64,000 nt of DNA, from contig CM037865.1 in assembly GCA_021292105.1 (NCBI GenBank), positions 70,422,356 through 70,486,355 of the forward strand, read 5' to 3'. Below are positions 13,683-64,000 of the stretch, piece after piece; position 1 is the first letter of the stretch, and every line of letters begins with the position of its first letter. Source of the stretch: Anadara kagoshimensis (taxonomy: Eukaryota > Mollusca > Bivalvia > Arcoida > Arcidae). A program made the position numbers and the translations under genes. A model generated the notes under the pieces. The model saw only the letters and a list, made by a program, of their open reading frames with translations, made no database searches and had not been told where the DNA came from.

Positions 13683-14095
13683 TATTAGTTAGTAGAGTGC
13701 TCGCCTCCTATGTGGGTTGAACCCCAGCTGGGTCTGACAAAAATAAGAAGGGATTGTTCCTTGTCCAAGTACTCCATTTAGGAGTGAAAGGCACTAGTAG
13801 GTCCTTCGAATAAGACCTTTTCCTTTCACATTGGCCTGAGCACAGGTTTCGTAGTAGGTTTTGAACCCTGTTTTGGTCTGACCAAGACTTAAAAAAAAGG
13901 TAGTGACTGTTTTTTTGCCAAGCATTAGGCATTTAGAAGTGAAAGTCAGGGGGTCCTTTGAAAGAGACCTATGCCCTATGTCACTGTAGGCATGGCACTT
14001 TAAAGGACCTTCCCTGCACATTGGTCTGAGCACACTGCAAAGGTCAAACTTTCTCCCACTTTACCTATAGCTGTTGACATATCATTGAGTCTGGG
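13683..14095 (+). mobile_element. Two SINE-A copies in tandem, the first truncated
   Basis: The first copy starts in a tRNA-like head ('agttagtagagtgctcgcct', then 'gttgaaccccagc') and reaches 'cattggcctgagcaca' by 13845. A second copy then restarts at 'ggttttgaaccctg' (about 13856), passes 'gtctgaccaagactta', 'ggcatggcactttaaaggac', 'ttccctgcacattggtctga' and 'gcacactgcaaagg', and ends near 'cctatagctgttgacat'. The piece at about 14005-14045 is the cleanest single-copy equivalent of the 43-bp unit amplified at 47.6 kb. Confidence 0.8.
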
Positions 14096-28302: not shown

Positions 28303-29140
28303 ATTCCCCTACCGGCGAAAGCTGAAGGGGACTGTAGGTTTGCGCTCTGTCCGTCTGTCCGTCTGTCCGTCCGTCCATCTGTCACATCTCAGTTTTCCAC
28401 ACCTATTTTTTAAAATCTTTTAGATAATGAACTGATTTTTGGTATGTGAGTCTACCATGATGAGTTGCAGATCAAGTTAGCGTTTCATTCTGGTCCGCAA
28501 ATTTTTACATGAGTTATGGCCCTTTGAACTTTGAAAATTCACTGAAATTTCAGTTTTCCTCTCTTTTTTTCTAAATGCTTTTAGATAATGAACTGATTTT
28601 TGGTATATGAGTCTACCATGATGAGTTACAGATCAAGTTTACGTTTCGTTTCCATCTGTTAATTTTAACCGGAGTTATGGCCCTTTGATCTTTGAAAATT
28701 CACTGAAATTTTAGTTTTCCGCACTTTTTTACTACACGCTTGCAGAAATGGAACTAATGTTTGGTATGTGACTCTACCATGATGAGTTACAGATCAAGTT
28801 TATGTTTTGTTTCCATCTGCAGATTTTTATGGGAGTTATGGCCGTTTGAACTTTGAAAATTCACTGAAACTTCAGTTTTCCACTCTTTTTTTCTACACGC
28901 TTGCAGTTAATGAATTGTTTTTTGGTATGCAGGTCAACAATGATGAGTTACAGATCAAGTTAACGTTTTGTTTCATTCTACTAGTTTTTATGGGAGTTAT
29001 GGCCCTTTGAACTTTGAGCTTTACATCTTGAACAACACATATAATTTATAACTACAAATCTTTGTACCATATAATAAGATACATTTTACCTAAAACTTTG
29101 GGATTAGTGAAATATGCAACCGGTAGGGGACTATTTATTG
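28303..29140 (+). mobile_element. Element with ATTCCCCTACCGG ends and four internal 160-bp units
   Basis: The left end 'attcccctaccggcgaaag' and the right end 'caaccggtaggggactatt' form inverted termini. After a 'tccgtctgtccgtctg' run come four diverged units of about 160 bp, each with 'cagttttcc', 'gataatgaactgatttttgg'-like sequence, 'accatgatgagttacagatc' and 'ggagttatggccctttgaac'. No long frame. The inverted ends suggest a mobile element; the class is unknown. Confidence 0.75.
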
Positions 29141-33424: not shown

Positions 33425-33545
33425 AGGACCACACAGGCCACCAAACTGTAACATATAGGGAAAGCAAAACGGTTGGACAAAGAATTGAAACTGGGACATC
33501 CTGCACTAAAGGCAAGTGCTCTACCATCTAAGCTACCCAGACGTC
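33425..33545 (-). mobile_element. SINE-C copy
   Basis: Minus strand: 'gggtagcttagatggtagag' and 'cacttgcctttagtgcagga', then 'cccagtttcaattctttgtc'. It is a diverged sister of the copy 200 bp to the left, so the pair may be a local duplication. Confidence 0.65.
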
Positions 33546-36993: not shown

Positions 36994-38287
36994 CTAACAA
37001 AGCTTGAACCATGGGAACCACAAAGTGTAAAATTCATCATAACGACAGTTTTTAAAAAGGATATAACGTTCTATTTCCAAATTCTTTTTTATTATGTTTT
37101 GAAGAGCAAAAATATTTAACTGATGCTTTTGTATTTTAGTTCTATATATATATTGTTTAATATTTAGTATTAGCCAGTTAAGCACTTTGTTTTGTTTATC
37201 TGTATATCCTAATAAAATTACTTTTTTACTTAATTCTATTTGTTCATTTTTTGTGTTAAAGATCCATCTTTGGATAGATTCCCATAGTTCGTACACTTTA
37301 TAACAGTCATAGAACAGGTGTTCCAGTGTTTCAACTTCATTGTTACAAAATGTACACTTATCCGAGTCAACATAATTGATTTTATATAAGAATGAGTTTG
37401 TAGCTAAGATTCTATGCAGGATCCTGTACTGAAACCATTGGGAAGTTGTATTTTTTGTAATTTTGAATGGTAGAATATAATAATTTCTCCATTCTAATTC
37501 AGAGATGTTATAGTTTAAATTTGCATATTTAGTCTGAGCTTTTGGATGGATATCGGTCCGCTTCAGAACCCCATAAATCTCTTTGCAACCTTTTTCATCT
37601 TTAAGAATGGATTTTAAATTATATGACATTTTAGGTCTATTGAGATTCTGAAATGGGCAGACATCCAATCCCAAAACTTTTTTTTGGTATGATTTTACAC
37701 TACTTATTAAAGAATTATACTCTAGAAAATTAGAGTCTACATCATATCTTGCAATAAAACTTTCATACTTTAAGAATTTTCCATGAACATCCATTAGATC
37801 ATGTATCATTGTTATATTCTTTTCTATATATTTTGTATAAATAATTGGTTTAAAATCTTTCCTTATATTACTGTTATAGAAAATATTAACACTTGCCATA
37901 TCTTCAAAATTTTTTGGAATTTCTTTTTCTTGGAGAATTTTCCAACTTTGTAAAACATCATTCCAAAAGTTGTTTATGATTTTTCTCTGTTTTATATCAA
38001 TAAAATAATCTCCACAATTGTAAATTTCATCCAGATTTATATTTGTTATTACTTTGCTAAGTTTCGCCCATTTTGATTCACTATTTTTAATAATTCTTCT
38101 AATCCATGTACATTTCAAAGCTGTAAAGAATTTTGGTAAACTAATCATTTTTATGCCTCCGTAACCATAATCTTGAATAAGTATATCTCTTTTTATCTTC
38201 TCTGGCTTGTTTTCCCAAATGAAATTAAAAAATAATTTCTCTAGATCTTTTACTAGTTTCTCATTTGGATTCGGTAGGGAAATAATT
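36994..38287 (-). pseudogene. LINE ORF2 C-terminal part
   Basis: Open from about 38287 (translated SLPNPNEKLVKDLEKLFF...) through the ATG-like Met at 38148 to a stop at 36994. About 45 residues of the frame lie upstream of that Met, so the Met is not a start. It carries the zinc-knuckle CTFCNNEVETLEHLFYDC (C-x2-C-x8-H-x4-C) near 37300-37360 and a Trp/Tyr-rich end (FYTLWFPWFKL). This is the domain that follows RT in L1/Tx1 ORF2 proteins. It is out of frame with the segment upstream because of a one-base loss near 38288-38296. Confidence 0.85.
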
Positions 38288-38642
38288 AAGTGGGTAATTT
38301 TGGAATTATTAGAGTTTTTAATACAGTATTTCTTCCTAACATCGTCAATTTTCTATGTGACCAATTTTTTATAGTACTTTTAATTTCTTTTATTTTTAAG
38401 TCATAATTTTGATCTGTGATCTGATCTAAATTTACTGAAAAATTTATGCCTAGTAATTTAAAGTTTGTAACTCCCCACTCTAGTTTCCATTTATCTCGGT
38501 GAAAAACTTCGGATGAAAATTTTTTACTCCCAATCCATATAACTTTGGTTTTTGTATAATTAATTTTAAGTCCAGAAACTCCTGCATAGTAATCTAAAAC
38601 TCTTAGAGTATTGTCTAGGGAACTGGGAGACCCATCTAACAA
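38286..38642 (-). pseudogene. LINE ORF2 thumb/connection segment
   Basis: Encodes LDGSPSSLDNTLRVLDYYAG, then GLKINYTKTKVIWIGSKKF and FKLLGINFS, the region directly after the YADD motif in non-LTR reverse transcriptases. The first Met is not a genuine start: the frame is the continuation of the RT after a one-base slip in a T run at about 38640-38645. It ends with a premature stop after IIPKLPT, where the next frame takes over. Confidence 0.85.
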
Positions 38643-39364
38643 AAACTAGTATCGTCTGCATACTGGGATATTAAATATTCTTCCCCTTCAATTTCTATTC
38701 CTTTTATTTCAGGATTTGATTTTATCAGAATTGCTAGTATCTCTGCACACAATATAAAAATATATGGTGATAAGGGATCACCTTGCCTGCAACCTCTTTC
38801 TAATTTAAATCTTTCCGATATGAAACCGTTTTGTGTAACTGCAGATTCTGCATTATTATATAGAGTTTGAATCCAACACTTAATAGAATCCTTGAAATTA
38901 AAAATAGATAAAACTTTTTGTATAAATTCCCATGAAACTGAATCGAATGCTTTTTCAAAATCAACAAGTAATAATAAGCCTGGCATATTGTTAATATCAG
39001 TATATTGCATTATATCATATATTAACCTAATATTTTCTCCTATAAAGCGACCTTTTATAAATCCTGTCTGATCTTTTGAAATAAGTGTATCAAGTGTTTT
39101 TTTAATTCTGTTTGCTATGCAGCCTGATGCAATTTTGTAGACACAATTTAATAAACTTATTGGTCTCCAGTTTTTTAAGTATTCTTTTTGTTTATCCGGT
39201 TTTGGTATACAAGTAATTATGCCTAGTTTCTGTGTATTGGACATTTCTTTTATGCTGTAACTATAATTTATTGATCTTACTATAAAGTAACCAATGTCTA
39301 TCCAAAAAAATTTAAAAAATTCGGTGGTAAAACCATCCGAGCCAGGACTTTTGTCATTTTTCAT
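38636..39364 (-). pseudogene. LINE ORF2 reverse transcriptase domain
   Basis: 242 residues open. Motifs in order: SPGSDGFTTEFF (residues 6-17), IPKPDKQKEYLKNWRPISLL (53-72), DQTGFIKGR (98-106), the motif A aspartates in LLVDFEKAFDSVSWE (D135), RGCRQGDPLSPYIF (190-203), and catalytic YADD (235-238, at 38651-38662). All three catalytic aspartates are present, so the domain decayed little before the frame is lost just after YADDTSF. Similar sequence in frame continues upstream (LSDDEAKLIEGEITYSEAKY) to about 39560, so the Met is not the start. Another frame break near 39570 separates it from the linker. It would act in the nucleus to copy its own RNA at the nicked target, but this copy cannot make an intact protein. 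Confidence 0.9.
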
Positions 39365-39659
39365 ATTCTTTAAAAAATATTTTGCTTCAGAATAGGTTAT
39401 CTCCCCTTCAATCAGTTTTGCTTCATCATCTGAAAGTATGTTGAAATTTAAATATTTTAATTTTTCTATAATACAGTCCTCATTTATTTTCCTAGGTTTT
39501 GAATAAAGTGTCTGATAAAAATTTTTTGTTTCCCTTAATATTTCTTTTTGGTCTGTTATAATTTCTCCATTTCTTTTTCAATTTTTGCAATTAATTTACT
39601 GTAGTAATTTCTTGACTCCATATTACAGAAGTAATTTGTGGGTTTTTCGCCTTCTTCTT

Positions 39660-45847: not shown

Positions 45848-46185
45848 CACTGTGGTAGCTCAGTTGGTAGAGTGATTGCTTCGTAAGTGGGAGGTCATGG
45901 TTTCAAACCCTTACCGGGTCTGACCAAAGACTTAAAAGTGGGTAGTAACTGTTCTTTTGCCAAGCATTTAGCATTACGAAATGAAAGTCACTGTTCATTT
46001 GGTTTGGAACTTAAAATAAATAAGGTCCCTTGTCAGGCATGGCACGGTAAAGAACCCTGCTATATAATATGCCATCAGCACAACGCACAGGCAAAATTTG
46101 TGCACCTTGGCTATAGCTGGCAATAAGCTGGCAACAGTTTGATATAAGTGAAATATTCTTGACTGGGATGTTAAACACCATTATT
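45848..46185 (+). mobile_element. SINE-A copy, full length reference
   Basis: Box A 'gtggtagctcagttggtaga', a B-box-like 'ggtttcaaacc', then 'gtctgaccaaagacttaaaa', 'tgccaagcatttagcattac', 'gcatggcacggtaaagaacc', 'gcacaacgcacaggcaaaat', 'ctatagctggcaataagctg', and the tail 'tgatataagtgaaatattct' with 'gactgggatgttaaaca'. The head is tRNA-like (CGT at the anticodon position), but the acceptor ends do not pair, so it is a SINE and not a tRNA gene. Confidence 0.88.
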
Positions 46186-47337: not shown

Positions 47338-50300
47338 CCCACTACAGTAGTTCAGTTGGTAGACTGCTTGCTTTGTATTTGGGAGGTTGTAGGTTCGACC
47401 CTGGCTGGGGTCTTTCCAAAACTTGAAAATAGGTAGTGACTGATCTTTTCTCAATCATTTGGCATTTAGAAATGATAGTCATAGAGTCCTTTGGTAGAGA
47501 CTAAAAAAACTGATGCCCCATGTTACGGCCGGTGTGGCACGTTTAAGAACAGTAAGCTGACCCTCCCTGCACATTGTCATGACCACACTACAAAGTTTGC
47601 TGACCTTCCCTGCACATTGTCATGACCACATTACAAAGTTTGCTGACATTCCCTGCACATTGTCATGACCACACTACAAAGTTTGCTGACCCTCCCTGCA
47701 CATTGTCATGACCACATTACAAAGTTTGCTGACCTTCCCTGCACATTGCCATGACCACACTACAAAGTTTGCTGACCCTCCCTGCACATTGTCATGACCA
47801 CACTACAAAGTTTGCTGACCCTCCCTGCACATTGTCATGACCACATTACAAAGTTTGCTGACCTTCCCTGCACATTGTCATGACCACACTACAAAGTTTG
47901 CTGACCTTCCCTGCACATTGTCATGACCACACTACAAAGTTTGCTGACCCTCCCTGCACATTGTCATGACCACACTACAAAGTTTGCTGACCCTCCCTGC
48001 ACATTGTCATGACCACACTACAAAGTTTGCTGACCTTCCCTGCACATTGTCATGACCACATTACAAAGTTTGCTGACCTTCCCTGCACTGCATGACCACA
48101 CTACAAAGTTTGCTGACCCTCCCTGCACATTGTCATGACCACATTACAAAGTTTGCTGACCCTCCCTGCACATTGTCATGACCACATTACAAAGTTTGCT
48201 GACCTTCCCTGCACATTGTCATGACCACATTACAAAGTTTGCTGACCCTCCCTGCACATTGTCATGACCACATTACAAAGTTTGCTGACCTTCCCTGCAC
48301 ATTGTCATGACCACACTACAAAGTTTGCTGAACCTCCCTGCACATTGTCATGACCACATTACAAAGTTTGCTGACCTTCCCTGCACATTGTCATGACCAC
48401 ACTACAAAGTTTGCTGACCCTCCCTGCACATTGTCATGACCACACTACAAAGTTTGCTGACCCTCCCTGCACATTGTCATGACCACACTACAAAGTTTGC
48501 TGACCTTCCCTGCACATTGTCATGACCACATTACAAAGTTTGCTGACATTCCCTGCACATTGTCATGACCACACTACAAAGTTTGCTGACCCTCCCTGCA
48601 CATTGTCATGACCACATTACAAAGTTTGCTGACCCTCCCTGCACATTGTCATGACCACATTACAAAGTTTGCTGACATTCCCTGCACATTGTCATGACCA
48701 CACTACAAAGTTTGCTGACCCTCCCTGCACATTGTCATGACCACACTACAAAGTTTGCTGACATTCCCTGCACATTGTCATGACCACACTACAAAGTTTG
48801 CTGACCCTCCCTGCACATTGTCATGACCACACTACAAAGTTTGCTGACCTTCCCTGCACATTGTCATGACCACACTACAAAGTTTGCTGACCTTCCCTGC
48901 ACATTGTCATGACCACACTACAAAGTTTGCTGACCCTCCCTGCACATTGTCATGACCACATTACAAAGTTTGCTGACCCTCCCTGCACATTGTCATGACC
49001 ACATTACAAAGTTTGCTGACATTCCCTGCACATTGTCATGACCACACTACAAAGTTTGCTGACCCTCCCTGCACATTGTCATGACCACATTACAAAGTTT
49101 GCTGACATTCCCTGCACATTGTCATGACCACACTACAAAGTTTGCTGACCCTCCCTGCACATTGTCATGACCACACTACAAAGTTTGCTGACCTTCCCTG
49201 CACATTGTCATGACCACACTACAAAGTTTGCTGACCTTCCCTGCACATTGTCATGACCACACTACAAAGTTTGCTGACCCTCCCTGCACATTGTCATGAC
49301 CACACTACAAAGTTTGCTGACCCTCCCTGCACATTGTCATGACCACACTACAAAGTTTGCTGACCTTCCCTGCACATTGTCATGACCACATTAAAAAGTT
49401 TGCTGACCTTCCCTGCACATTGTCATGACCACATTACAAAGTTTGCTGACCTTCCCTGCACATTGTCATGACCACACTACAAAGTTTGCTGACCCTCCCT
49501 GCACATTGTCATGACCACACTACAAAGTTTGCTGACCCTCCCTGCACATTGTCATGACCACACTACAAAGTTTGCTGACCCTCCCTGCACATTGTCATGA
49601 CCACACTACAAAGTTTGCTGAACCTCCCTGCACATTGTCATGACCACACTACAAAGTTTGCTGACCCTCCTGCACATTGTCATGACCACACTACAAAGTT
49701 TGCTGACCCTCCCTGCACATTGTCATGACCACACTACAAAGTTTGCTGACCTTCCCTGCACATTGTCATGACCACACTACAAAGTTTGCTGACATTCCCT
49801 GCACATTGTCATGACCACATTACAAAGTTTGCTGACATTCCCTGCACATTGTCATGACCACACTACAAAGTTTGCTGACCCTCCCTGCACATTGTCATGA
49901 CCACATTACAAAGTTTGCTGACATTCCCTGCACATTGTCATGACCACACTACAAAGTTTGCTGACCCTCCCTGCACATTGTCATGACCACACTACAAAGT
50001 TTGCTGACCCTCCCTGCACATTGTCATGACCACATTACAAAGTTTGCTGACCTTCCCTGCACATTGTCATGACCACACTACAAAGTTTGCTGACCTTCCC
50101 TGCACATTGTCATGACCACACTACAAAGTTTGCTGACCTTCCCTGCACATTGTCATGACCACATTACAAAGTTTGCTGACCTTCCCTGCACATTGTCATG
50201 ACCACACTACAAAGTTTGCTGACCCTCCCTGCACATTGTCATGACCACATTACAAAGTTTGCTGACCCTCCCTGCACATTGTCATGACCACACTACAAAG

Positions 50301-51942
50301 TTTGCTGACCCTCCCTGCACATTGTCATGACCACATTACAAAGTTTGCTGACCTTCCCTGCACATTGTCATGACCACACTACAAAGTTTGCTGACCCTCC
50401 CTGCACATTGTCATGACCACATTACAAAGTTTGCTGACCTTCCCTGCACATTGTCATGACCACATTACAAAGTTTGCTGACCTTCCCTGCACATTGTCAT
50501 GACCACACTACAAAGTTTGCTGACCTTCCCTGCACATTGTCATGACCACACTACAAAGTTTGCTGACCCTCCCTGCACATTGTCATGACCACACTACAAA
50601 GTTTGCTGACCCTCCCTGCACATTGTCATGACCACATTACAAAGTTTGCTGACCTTCCCTGCACATTGTCATGACCACACTACAAAGTTTGCTGACCCTC
50701 TCTGCACATTGTCATGACCACATTACAAAGTTTGCTGACCTTCCCTGCACATTGTCATGACCACACTACAAAGTTTGCTGACCTTCCCTGCACATTGTCA
50801 TGACCACATTACAAAGTTTGCTGACCCTCCCTGCACATTGTCATGACCACACTACAAAGTTTGCTGACCCTCCCTGCACATTGTCATGACCACACTACAA
50901 AGTTTGCTGACCCTCCCTGCACATTGTCATGACCACATTACAAAGTTTGCTGACCCTCCCTGCACATTGTCATGACCACACTACAAAGTTTGCTGACCCT
51001 CCCTGCACATTGTCATAACCACACTACAAAGTTTGCTGACCTTCCCTGCACATTGTCATGACCACACTACAAAGTTTGCTGACCCTCCCTGCACATTGTC
51101 ATGACCACACTACAAAGTTTGCTGACCCTCCCTGCACATTGTCATGACCACACTACAAAGTTTGCTGACCCTCCCTGCACATTGTCATGACCACACTACA
51201 AAGTTTGCTGACCCTCCCTGCACATTGTCATGACCACACTACAAAGTTTGCTGACCCTCCCTGCACATTGTCATGACCACACTACAAAGTTTGCTGACAT
51301 TCCCTGCACATTGTCATGACCACACTACAAAGTTTGCTGACCTTCCCTGCACATTGTCATGACCACACTACAAAGTTTGCTGACCCTCCCTGCACATTGT
51401 CATGACCACACTACAAAGTTTGCTGACCCTCCCTGCACATTGTCATGACCACACTACAAAGTTTGCTGACCCTCCCTGCACATTGTCATGACCACACTAC
51501 AAAGTTTGCTGACCTTCCCTGCACATTGTCATGACCACACTACAAAGTTTGCTGACCCTCCCTGCACATTGTCATGACCACACTACAAAGTTTGCTGACC
51601 TTCCCTGCACATTGTCATGACCACACTACAAAGTTTGCTGACCTTCCCTGCACATTGTCATGACCACACTACAAAGTTTGCTGACCTTCCCTGCACTGCA
51701 TGACCACACTACAAAGTTTGCTGACCCTCCCTGCACATTGTCATGACCACACTACAAAGTTTGCTGACCTTCCCTGCACATTGTCATGACCACACTACAA
51801 AGTTTGCTGACCCTCCCTGCACATTGTCATGACCACACTACAAAGTTTGAAAATGTCTGTCACTTCGCCTATAGCTGGTGCTGACATTGTGATCAAAGTG
51901 ATCCAAATGTTTTTGACTGACTTGACATAAAACCCCTTTCCA
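47338..51942 (+). mobile_element. SINE-A copy expanded by an internal array
   Basis: 47338-47557 is the 5' half of SINE-A: box A 'tagttcagttggtagactgc', B box 'aggttcgaccctg', 'gaaaataggtagtgactgat', 'catttggcatttagaaatga', 'ggtgtggcacgtttaagaac'. 51850-51942 is the 3' half: 'aaaatgtctgtcacttcgcc', 'tatagctggtgctgacattg', 'tgatcaaagtgatccaa'. Both halves align in order with single SINE-A copies. The 4.3 kb between them is a 43-bp tandem array that replaces one 43-bp segment of the element. Confidence 0.9.
47558..51849 (+). repeat. 43-bp minisatellite of about 100 units
   Basis: 4,292 bp of head-to-tail 43-bp units, core 'tgaccctccctgcacattgt', 'catgaccacactacaaag', 'tttgc'. About 100 copies by length. 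Most differ only at two sites: 'gaccctcc'/'gaccttcc'/'gacattcc', and 'cacactac'/'cacattac'. Rare private changes include 'ttaaaaag' (49392), 'cataacc' (51016), 'ctctctgc' (50698) and two identical 40-bp short units. No frame is open, since 43 is not a multiple of 3 and stops occur. No spacers, so it is not a CRISPR array. Confidence 0.97.
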
Positions 51943-51967
51943 GTTCCTGACATTTCATTCATACTGT

Positions 51968-52168
51968 TTTAGTCTATATTTTCTGTTTTATTGTTGACTT
52001 TGTTAGTCTATATTTTCTGTTTTATTGTTGACTTTGTTAGTCTATATTTTCTGTTTTATTGTTGACTTTGTTAGTCTATATTTTCTGTTTTATTGTTGAC
52101 TTTGTTAGTCTATATTTTCTGTTTTATTGTTGACTTTGTTAGTCTATATTTTCTGTTTTATTGTTGAC
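51968..52168. repeat. 34-bp minisatellite, six units
   Basis: Six identical or nearly identical units, core 'ttagtctatattttctgttt' then 'tattgttgactttg'. It starts 25 bp after the end of the expanded SINE. Confidence 0.95.
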
Positions 52169-52927: not shown

Positions 52928-53218
52928 AAAGTTAAAGTCTGTCCCGAGCCATTAGGCCCATCAGGCCAGAGCTTATCCCGGTTTCCGTGGCGTTAAGCAA
53001 CTGAGAGTACAAGACTCGCCCCTGAATGGGATGCCGGTCCATCGCAGGGTTAACCCCCAGCATTTTGCTGGTACTCATTTATTTTTCAGCTGAGTGAACT
53101 GGAACAACGTGAAATTAAGTGTCTTGCTCAAGGACACAACACATCGCCCGGTCCAGGGATCGAACCCACGACCTTCGAATCATGAGTCCAACGCCTTAAC
53201 CACTAGGCCACGCGCTTC
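52928..53218 (-). mobile_element. tRNA-derived SINE with a GC-rich core
   Basis: Minus strand: tRNA-like head 'gtggcctagtggttaaggcg' (box A) and 'gtgggttcgatccctgg' (box B, near-perfect), then 'gtcttgtactctcagttgct', 'taacgccacggaaaccggga', and the self-complementary 'ctggcctgatgggcc'. Clearly less decayed and richer in CpG than other SINEs here. The core wording is of a type I associate with widespread invertebrate SINE core domains; no name is assigned. Confidence 0.8.
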
Positions 53219-54364: not shown

Positions 54365-54450
54365 TAGGTTAGACAAGTGAACACCAAAGAAGTGAGGCTT
54401 GGTGCTCCAAAGGGGTAAGCACCTCCAGTTTAGCTAGCTACACCTGCCAT
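54365..54450 (-). mobile_element. Family D fragment
   Basis: Minus strand: 'gtgtagctagctaaactgga', 'ggtgcttacccctttggagc' and 'aagcctcacttctttggtgt'. Matches 17745-17860. Confidence 0.6.
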
Positions 54451-54480
54451 ATATGTAATTAAAATTGGGAATAAAAGGAG

Positions 54481-54792
54481 CATGGAAATATCTGACCTTA
54501 AACATATCCAGGGTAAGACATCATACTTATCAACAATATTGTTATGATGGCCATGGGACATGGAAATATCTGACCTTAAACATATCCAGGGTAAGACATC
54601 ATACTTATCAACAATATTGTTATGATGGCCATGGGACATGGAAATATCTGACCTTAAACATATCCAGGGTAAGACATCATACTTATCAACAATATTGTTA
54701 TGATGGCCATGGGACATGGAAATATCTGACCTTAAACATATCCAGGGTAAGACATCATACTTATCAACAATATTGTTATGATGGCCATGGGA
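54481..54792. repeat. 78-bp tandem repeat, four identical units
   Basis: Units start at 54481, 54559, 54637 and 54715, core 'catggaaatatctgacctta', 'aacatatccagggtaagaca', 'atattgttatgatggccatg'. No differences were seen between units. 78 is a multiple of 3, so stop-free frames of 95 and 111 codons run on opposite strands; these are not credited as genes. Confidence 0.96.
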
Positions 54793-56077
54793 CTTTTTGA
54801 GGGCTTTGATATTTAAGCCTAGGCCTTCAATAATCTTGCATCAAAAATTTATTTGGAAGAAATTTGCTTTATTGTATAAAGTTCCTGTAGTGGGAACAAG
54901 CTTTACCACAATTATCTGATAACTGCATGAATGTTGAAAGCTGTTCACAAACTATATATGATAATATTATTATCCCTTTTTGTACTCAAGGATATTTATA
55001 TCACATAATCTTGTGAAAATTAAAATTATTTCCTTGTTAAGAAGTTAATTATTTATTACTGTATATTCAGAGGACAGTATATTAATTTTCATTGATATAT
55101 ATATGAGGTAAGTAAATGATTAATTTATAGTCAGCTGGCAGTAAAATAACTCAAAAACAGTTACACGTCCAACACCAATAAAATTGTGTCATTAGAATCT
55201 AATTCCTTTCACATAAATGATTGGGCACTACCGAACATTACCAAACTGACGGGTGCAATAATTGCATTTATAGTACACTATTGTTATTAAATACCTGAGC
55301 ATTTTCAAAAAATAATATTCAATGAATATTTCAAGACTGGTATATTATCTAATTAGATTATTATGCACATCCTTAACCTTAAAACATTGATTAAAAAGAT
55401 ATTAATGTCTCTTTTTCTTTCTTTACTTCATTTTTTTGAGTCCTAAAAACAAAAAAAGCATAACATGCATTTAGTTTAGATATGAATTTTGAATTTTTAA
55501 GTTTTAAAATAAAATATTCAATTAATTGACTGTCTGGAAGTTTTAAAAAAGCAATATGAAGTTATTTTGCTTATTAAAATATAGACAAAAGAAAATGAGA
55601 TATTCCCACATACGTTTGTAATCAGAATTTTAAGTTTGTAATACTGAAAAAAAAAAATGGGTTAATTTATTTGATTTATTTTTAAATCTTAAGTTTTCAT
55701 TCACATATTGTTCATTTAATTGCATCGAATGGTTTATTTTAATACAGTTATTTTTGTGTGAAGTTACATTTTGACAGTTTTCATTGTTTTTGTGTGTCGG
55801 CTGTCACATTACTTAACAAGTTTTTGTTGTGAGAATTCAGAGAAAACTTAATTTTCAATATCTTATTTAATTTGTTCATAAAAATTGTTTAAATGTTCTT
55901 TGAATATTGACAATTACAAAACCAGCTCACTCTCTGTACCAGTGTGTTTGTGACAGTTAATTTTGTTAAAAGAAAATTAATAAACTTAAATGAATTTGAT
56001 TTCCAATCACTGTTTTGTCTTAAGTCTGAACTGAAAATCCTAGCAACTGATAATAATCTGTTAATGAGAATAATCTT
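54793..56077. other. AT-rich non-coding stretch
   Basis: Nothing recognised. Confidence 0.45.
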
Positions 56078-63158: not shown

Positions 63159-64000
63159 ATACTTCCAACACAATGTGACAGAGTCTGTGTATGCTCAGTG
63201 TATACTTCCAACACAATGTGACAGAGTCTGTGCATGCTCAGTGTATACTTCCAACACAATGTGACAGAGTCTGTGTATGCTCAGTGTATACTTCCAACAC
63301 AATGTGACAGAGTCTGTGTATGCTCAGTGTATACTTCCAACACAATGTGACAGAGTCTGTGCATGCTCAGTGTATACTTCCAACACAATGTGACAGAGTC
63401 TGTGTATGCTCAGTGTGTACTTCCAACACAATGTGACAGAGTCTGTGTATGCTCAGTGTATACTTCCAACACAATGTGACAGAGTCTGTGTATGCTCAGT
63501 GTATACTTCCAACACAATGTGACAGAGTCTGTGCATGCTTAGTGTATACTTCCAATACAATGTGACAGAGTCTGTGTATGCTCAGTGTATACTGACAGAG
63601 TCTGTGTATGCTCAGTGTATACTTCCAACACAATGTGACAGAGTCTGTGTATGCTCAGTGTATACTTCCAATACAATGTGACAGAGTCTGTGTATGCTCA
63701 GTGTATACTTCCAACACAATGTGACAGAGTCTGTGTATGCTCAGTGTATACTTCCAACACAATGTGACAGAGTCTGTGCATGCTCAGTGTATACTTCCAA
63801 CACAATGTGACAGAGTCTGTGTATGCTCAGTGTATACATGTACTTCCAATACAATGTGACAGAGTCTGTGCATGCTCAGTGTATACTTCCAACACAATGT
63901 GACAGAGTCTGTGTATGCTCAGTGCATACTTCCAACACAATGTGACATAGATTGTGTATGCTCAGTGTATACTTCCAACACAATGTGACAGAGATTGTGT
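63159..64000. repeat. 43-bp minisatellite running off the window
   Basis: About 19-20 units of 43 bp, core 'acttccaacacaatgtgaca', 'gagtctgtgtatgctcagtg', 'tat'. Variation is nearly confined to 'tgtgtatg'/'tgtgcatg' and 'aacaca'/'aataca'. One unit lacks the 'acttccaacacaatg' part (63590) and one has a 4-bp 'catg' insertion (63837). The array is still running at base 64000. Confidence 0.96.

What the first reader, a model, noticed from the sequence alone, without database searches (positions are those of the whole stretch)
47338..51942. A SINE turned into a 4.3-kb satellite: about 100 copies of one 43-bp internal segment
The array is bounded on the left by the tRNA-head half and on the right by the tail half of the same SINE family, in the right order and strand. 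In other copies (for example 13856-14095, 1440-1720, 45848-46185) the equivalent of the 43-bp unit occurs once. The simplest reading is that the array grew after insertion from a part of a single SINE, which catches the birth of a satellite with its parent still attached.
Basis: partly seen in the sequence, partly recalled or inferred. Interest (0 to 1): 0.8.

Follow-up and report, generated by a model that had tools for sequence, protein, structure and literature searches.

The report
SINE piece expanded into tandem array
A small jumping element in an animal genome has had one short inner piece copied about 100 times in place, with both halves of the parent element still attached; it is a clear snapshot of how a tandem repeat is born, but the same thing has happened at several other copies in this genome and is known from other animals.

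Summary
47556-51849 is a 43-bp unit x 100, flanked in order and strand by the 5' part (tRNA-like head) and 3' part of one SINE. Reduced to one unit, the copy aligns across the unit to 29 of 39 fetched relatives. A unit-junction 35-mer (up to 3 mismatches) has 98 places in the 1.1-Gb genome, all in this array: it grew in place. The SINE is as diverged as its relatives; the units are far more uniform.

New: this is not a lone event. Ten further independent loci hold arrays of the same SINE segment, eight with SINE on both sides by BLAST; others expanded the SINE tail. Five of the ten share a register that fits a TGCCC direct repeat 50 bp apart in the SINE. By rough arithmetic the number fits this genome's general minisatellite density, so the SINE looks like a frequent bystander rather than a special nursery. 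SINE-derived satellites are known (reptiles, mouse B1). Solid, moderately interesting, a new member of a known kind.

The parts
47338..47555 (+). 5' part of the parent SINE
   Evidence: aligns to the SINE consensus from position 2 up to the unit; 12.3% substitutions from the consensus over 47338-47550
47341..47412 (+). tRNA-like head of the SINE
   Evidence: Rfam tRNA model positions 1-71, 20.0 bits, E 0.052, below the gathering score of 29
47550..47560 (+). 11-bp stretch private to this copy among those examined; its last 5 bp open the repeat unit
   Evidence: gap in the consensus alignment of 37 other copies; the exact 22-mer across it occurs once in the genome, 7 other places at 3 mismatches against 4 in the control
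47556..51848 (+). tandem array of about 100 units of 43 bp; unit = SINE consensus 212-247 plus 7-8 bp
   Evidence: TRF; unit split; unit matches SINE 212-247 at 86%
51849..51940 (+). 3' part of the parent SINE (end approximate)
   Evidence: right flank matches SINE up to consensus 331; 15.5% substitutions over 51850-51945
51969..52168 (+). neighbouring 34-bp array just beyond the SINE end (not part of the SINE)
   Evidence: TRF 5.9 copies, 100% match; no SINE match to its unit

Best explanation
An old tRNA-type SINE copy suffered one tandem duplication of an inner segment (family positions about 212-247 plus a few junction bases). That duplication then grew to about 100 head-to-tail units at the same place by repeated unequal exchange, slippage or conversion, leaving both outer parts of the SINE as flanks. 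Shown: parts of one SINE on both sides, one unit-equivalent in relatives, a single-locus array, an old parent and far more uniform units. Inferred: the order of events; the founding step (the array ends share only 1 bp of homology, so template switching or end joining with little homology is most likely); and the growth mechanism. No function is proposed: it is most likely neutral, unstable DNA.
For: Array and flanks. The collapsed copy aligns across the unit as one SINE to 29 of 39 fetched copies; consensus from 37 of the 39. Junction unique to the locus: 98 of 98 places. SINE nature: tRNA-like head; CAAT tail in the consensus; target-site duplications above chance in the 28 of 39 copies with both ends (near-identical pairs included), longest shared word mean 5.9 against 4.9 +/- 0.2 for shuffled partners, two copies with 12 bp. 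The parent's divergence of 12.3% (left) and 15.5% (right) sits with the 39 copies' 9.9-16.7%, median 13.5%. Units differ at sites 7, 8 and 33; 9 of 100 units carry a rarer change. The same process is visible at other loci with 3 to about 98 copies between SINE parts, and segmentally duplicated pairs differ in copy number, 9.9 against 26.0 and 8.1 against 13.5, which shows change in length in place.
Against: No shared word of 6 bp or more was found between the two flanks of this copy, so its own insertion is inferred from homology. In 10 of 39 fetched copies the match to the collapsed copy stops before or inside the unit; by eye the segment is diverged or partly deleted there. The 11 private bases at the left edge mean that the pre-expansion SINE is not fully known; they may be an insertion or a decayed extra unit. 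The order of unit variants is random (lag-1 p 0.35; longest repeated run 4 against 4.9 in shuffles; sites 8 and 33 unlinked, p 0.19), without the blocks that unequal crossing-over leaves in the C7:11.7 and C5 arrays. Mis-polishing of the assembly, or very efficient short-tract conversion, could cause that.
Confidence: 0.92

Rival explanations
1. The array formed in a mobile source SINE and was carried here by retrotransposition, as the VNTR of primate SVA elements is (recalled).
For: Composite retroelements with an inner VNTR exist (SVA, recalled, not from a call).
Against: The unit junction was found nowhere else in the genome at up to 3 mismatches. The 5 array pairs found elsewhere share flanks outside the SINE at 93-98% identity, so they spread by segmental duplication.
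Confidence: 0.03
2. A SINE inserted into, or was cut by, a satellite that existed before.
For: None found; other dispersed tandem repeats do exist in this genome.
Against: The unit is the missing SINE segment itself and stands exactly where the SINE needs it; no second locus of the 43-bp array at up to 3 mismatches.
Confidence: 0.02
3. The SINE carries a special recombination hotspot that makes its segment 177-250 a satellite nursery.
For: Ten further independent loci expanded this segment; five of them use one register flanked by a TGCCC direct repeat at consensus 177 and 227 (the motif is varied in two of them). A motif further upstream, GCATTTAGAAAT (17 of 37 copies, against 14 of 37 for the core motif), gave 11 matches: 3 two-copy SINE cases, one array counted 7 times and one that looks unrelated, with 3 in the control.
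Against: The tail motif TAAGTGAAATAT (13 of 37) gave 124 matches (43 + 81; control 2) with many SINE-tail arrays (3 fetched, 2 confirmed with SINE attached). Rough arithmetic of mine gives about 8 loci expected from background minisatellite density against 9 seen with units of 32-62 bp besides the focal one (inputs). DNA folding showed no unusual structure in the segment (lowest z -1.2).
Confidence: 0.15
4. The array, or its length and variant order, is an assembly or polishing artefact.
For: One assembly only; the variant order is random.
Against: The same kind of array exists at many loci, and two of the five sister arrays tested keep strong block structure; the flanks are clean.
Confidence: 0.04

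Closest known systems
SINE-derived satellites (sSat) of scaled reptiles, Vassetzky et al. 2023, PMC10702118 (abstract, Background, opening of Results and whole Discussion read; passages elsewhere)
   Same: Tandem arrays of part of a SINE, from a few to hundreds of units, mostly of independent origin, parent SINE sequence at an array end
   Different: Reptile units are about 70-290 nt and mostly keep a SINE terminus at one end, both ends being a minor variant; here units of 21-62 bp, with SINE on both sides at 8 of 10 other loci and at the focal one; different SINE family
[quoted passage not shown] 1998 (seen only as reference 78 and a table row of the review PMC9659126; further details recalled)
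   Same: Expansion of a short piece within SINE copies into a tandem repeat
   Different: The mouse unit is a hexamer, (GGCAGA)n; here 43 bp
PcH-Sat of the limpet Patella caerulea, from a Nin-SINE, PMC11121367 (abstract and passages)
   Same: Tandem repeat derived from part of a SINE in a mollusc
   Different: 179-bp unit, about 10% of the genome by dot blot, mainly pericentromeric; there the origin is inferred by similarity, here the parent is attached at a single locus
Human minisatellites within Alu and other transposable elements (passages of review PMC9659126)
   Same: Minisatellites born inside abundant retroelements
   Different: Other SINE family and host

Membership tests
tRNA-derived SINE (the parent) | tRNA-like head | tested here: met
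   Full-length match to the Rfam tRNA model, 20 bits, below the gathering score; in 1 of 16 other sources a copy's head passes the gathering score (L016); ARAGORN found no tRNA gene in the window
tRNA-derived SINE (the parent) | simple-repeat tail | tested here: met
   CAAT tail in the consensus of 37 copies; decayed in the focal copy
tRNA-derived SINE (the parent) | target-site duplications | tested here: met
   Family level: 28 of 39 copies usable, observed mean above all 300 shuffles; none found for the focal copy
tRNA-derived SINE (the parent) | many dispersed copies | tested here: met
   18-mer AACCCTCCCTGCACATTG: 1576 exact places, some of them inside arrays; control 0
tRNA-derived SINE (the parent) | 3' end shared with a partner LINE | not tested
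   No partner LINE was sought
RUDI / V-SINE superfamily of molluscs (recalled) | sequence identity to the RUDI consensus | not testable with these tools
   No reference consensus was at hand; the resemblance is from memory
SINE-derived satellite (sSat) | tandem units homologous to part of a SINE | tested here: met
SINE-derived satellite (sSat) | SINE sequence extending from the array towards a SINE end | tested here: met
   both ends
SINE-derived satellite (sSat) | at least four middle units (working threshold of PMC10702118) | tested here: met
   100 units
Satellite DNA in the strict sense | long arrays at many loci, tied to heterochromatin | tested here: not met
   Single 4.3-kb locus at up to 3 mismatches, 5.2 Mb from the end of contig C9; heterochromatin not testable

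The most novel reading that the evidence does not exclude
This SINE carries in its own sequence short direct repeats (TGCCC 50 bp apart) that set the register of founding duplications, so that its roughly ten thousand copies act as a standing library of satellite seeds. The genome then holds a graded series, from 3 copies to about 100, of parent-attached tandem arrays of independent origin.
Probability: 0.25. Interest if true: 0.6.

Novelty: new member of a known kind. Interest (0 to 1): 0.42.

Why it matters
How satellites begin is usually inferred long after the parent sequence has gone. Here the parent element, its single-copy relatives and a series of independent expansions of different length stand in one genome, with a known ancestral state, boundaries and register. 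That makes the founding step (does a short direct repeat set the unit?) and the growth step (block exchange or short-tract conversion?) directly measurable. The focal array by itself is a fine example of a known process.

Tried and rejected
Hotspot idea: after I thought that segment 177-250 was uniquely prone. contradicts this (the tail also expands often) and the background arithmetic explains the number, so it is kept only as a rival. Hairpin idea: DNA folding of sliding windows gave no significant structure in the segment. Higher-order repeats in the focal array: none. Target-site duplication of the focal copy: no shared word of 6 bp or more. Origin of the 11 private bases: not resolved; they weakly resemble the end of a unit (CAGTAAG against CAAAGTTTG, by eye). 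Gene content: of 33 open frames of 90 aa or more five were scanned; two hold reverse-transcriptase domains. A third, 54430-54837, passes one Pfam cut-off (DUF4287) by repetition of a 20-residue match in a tandem array and is taken as spurious. Host species was not determined; that it is a mollusc is only a guess from the recalled look of the SINE. Planned but not done: the control motif GACTTGAAAATA and a second listing of the core-motif pairs, both unanswered and not repeated.

Full report
Observation. Tandem Repeats Finder reports 47556-51849 as a 43-bp unit repeated 100.0 times at 96%. Splitting at the unit boundary gives 100 units: 97 of 43 bp, two of 40 and one of 42, in 14 types; the five commonest types make 90 of 100. 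Variation sits at site 8 (53 C, 44 T), site 33 (68 C, 29 T) and site 7 (87 C, 10 A) among the 97 full-length units. Nine of 100 units carry a rarer change; among them two share a substitution at site 6 and two share a 3-bp deletion.

Flanks. In the window, blastn places the left flank (47339-47551 in pieces) and the right flank (from 51850) on other copies of the same repeat in the right order and strand. A MAFFT alignment of the focal copy, with the array cut to one unit, against eight other stretches shows at most one unit-equivalent in each of seven; the eighth looks like a different element. From the whole genome (G000, 1.115 Gb, 36 contigs, window = C9:70422356-70486355) I fetched all 39 non-focal places listed; that list held only the best-scored of 3802 first-look candidates. 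The collapsed focal copy aligns across the unit to 29 of the 39, for example 3-349 at 74% (L024), 2-352 at 73.5% (L026, L027) and 2-357 at 73% (L017); in the other 10 the match ends by query position 239, where by eye the segment is diverged or partly deleted. A consensus of 37 (two near-identical duplicates dropped) places the unit at consensus 212-247 and shows an 11-bp stretch at 47550-47560 that the focal copy alone has. Across the genome that stretch has one exact place; 7 others fit at 3 mismatches, control 4. At the array's two ends 1 bp (G) is shared, so the founding duplication had almost no homology to use (sequence).

The parent is a SINE. Its head matches the tRNA model over its full length at 20 bits, below the gathering score of 29; one of 16 related loci has a head that passes it. 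The family has a CAAT tail. In the 28 of 39 copies with both ends, near-identical pairs included, the flanks share longer words than shuffled partners do (5.9 against 4.9 +/- 0.2), with two 12-bp target-site duplications. It is dispersed: an 18-mer of it occurs 1576 times, some of them inside arrays, control 0. Since 5 of 37 copies hold that 18-mer, the family has on the order of 10,000 copies (my arithmetic; the 37 are a biased sample). It resembles the molluscan V-SINE RUDI from memory only.

Grown in place. A 35-mer across the unit junction, up to 3 mismatches, gives 98 places, all in this array, none on the other strand and none in the control. The SINE flanks are 12.3% and 15.5% from the consensus by substitutions, like the 39 copies (9.9-16.7%, median 13.5%), while the units are 96% alike. 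So an old SINE holds a younger, or strongly homogenised, array.

Not alone. Two copies of CCCTGCACATTG 20-50 bp apart occur 152 + 111 times in the genome, control 0. Only 100 of the 263 rows are listed, up to contig C7; 91 of the 163 unlisted belong to the focal array, and the rest I saw only in part through a second pattern, which lists all its 61 places. The loci below are therefore a lower bound. I fetched 15 array loci (L061-L075). Five pairs share 93-98% identical flanks outside the SINE and are segmental duplicates, which leaves 10 independent loci: C1:21.3/21.98 Mb (43 bp, x9.9 and x26), C1:35.9 (50 bp x4), C1:46.4 (34 bp x3), C3 pair (21 bp x2.4 and x3.4), C4:47.8 (46 bp x18), C5 pair (50 bp, at least x33, and x98), C7:4.1/4.3 (36 bp, x8.6 and x9.6), C7:11.7 (50 bp x61), C11:31.3 (43 bp x62-63) and C17 pair (50 bp, x13.5 and x8). 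Eight of the ten have SINE on both sides by BLAST. C7:4.1/4.3 has it clearly on the right only. C11 has it on the right by BLAST, with a tRNA-like head on the left by eye. Five of the ten (C1:35.9, C4, C5, C7:11.7, C17) use the same register by eye (C4 with 4 bp missing). It fits the only direct repeat of 5 bp or more at exactly 50-bp spacing in the consensus, TGCCC at 177 and 227, although the motif itself reads TGTCC at C7:11.7 and TGCCT at C17. In the C4 and C7:11.7 copies the edges share 10 bp. The focal array uses another register.

Against a special hotspot. An upstream motif, GCATTTAGAAAT (17 of 37 copies, against 14 of 37 for the core motif), with the same spacing gave 11 matches: three SINE cases of two copies, one array counted 7 times and one that looks unrelated; control 3. 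But the tail motif TAAGTGAAATAT (13 of 37) gave 43 + 81 with many arrays, control 2 (list cut). Of three fetched, two show a SINE running into an array of its own tail (54 bp x13 after SINE 1-330; 62 bp x7), and the third is a 34-bp array without a recognised SINE flank in the 1.2 kb taken. Background: in 126.8 kb of the 39 fetched SINE loci there are 19 arrays of at least 3.5 copies with units of 15-200 bp (1.5 per 10 kb), 8 of them with units of 32-62 bp; the window has 16 in 64 kb. From this, about 8 arrays would be expected to include the core motif in the about 3,800 copies that hold it, against 9 seen with such units besides the focal one (8 of them with at least 3.5 copies). This arithmetic is mine and rough: the list is incomplete and both copy number and density come from small or biased samples. 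On this evidence the SINE is expanded about as often as other DNA of this genome.

How it grew. Variant order in the focal array is random: adjacent units are no more alike than shuffled ones (p 0.35), the longest repeated run of units is 4 (shuffles 4.9), and sites 8 and 33 are not linked (p 0.19). Of five sister arrays tested the same way, C7:11.7 (60 units) and C5 (49 of about 98 units kept by the anchor) show strong block repeats (0 of 300 shuffles reach them); C11 (49 units) shows none, C4 is borderline (p 0.03 and 0.13) and C1:21.98 (11 units) is not significant. Unequal exchange in blocks fits C7 and C5. For the focal array, short-tract conversion that has mixed the variants, or polishing artefacts, must be considered. 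Segmentally duplicated pairs differ in copy number (9.9 against 26.0; 8.1 against 13.5), which shows that such arrays change length where they stand.

Known work. SINE-derived satellites were described from 56 squamate genomes (PMC10702118; abstract, Background, opening of Results and Discussion read; passages). The mouse B1-derived VNTR family and Alu minisatellites are listed in a review (PMC9659126; passages). A limpet satellite from a Nin-SINE is in PMC11121367 (abstract and passages). The listings of my eight paper searches showed no title on this particular array or on a series like it in a mollusc-type SINE; I opened only those three papers, and most subscription journals are not held. 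Verdict: real, well explained, a new member of a known kind, with added value as part of a graded series.

Noticed in passing
51969-52168: A second array (34 bp x 5.9, 100% identical) starts about 30 bp beyond the SINE end; two unrelated arrays stand side by side.
   Followed up: no
47556-51848: The order of unit variants is statistically random, unlike the C7:11.7 and C5 sister arrays, which show block repeats; not explained.
   Followed up: partly
1-64000: 16 tandem arrays of at least 3.5 copies (unit 15-200 bp) cover 18% of the window; the genome is rich in minisatellites.
   Followed up: partly
28389-29017 and L061:3224-3797: 161-bp tandem units at the two places share sequence by eye (TRF units), so a dispersed satellite family may exist; 145-bp arrays occur in L013, L045 and L046.
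   Followed up: no
63159-64000 and L052:29-534: A 43-bp array at the window's edge runs on into the next stretch; its unit gave no match to the SINE.
   Followed up: no
36994-39577, - strand: Fragments with reverse-transcriptase domains (RVT_1, zf-RVT), probably a decayed LINE.
   Followed up: no
33470-33542 and 53149-53212, - strand: tRNA-model matches just above the gathering score, probably heads of other SINEs.
   Followed up: no
L025, about 1325-1416: Another SINE copy is followed by a second copy of part of its 3' region, perhaps an even earlier stage.
   Followed up: partly
genome contig C7:34077698-34078102 (outside the window): A 56-bp array begins with a SINE-like word but its unit is mostly other sequence by eye.
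   Followed up: no
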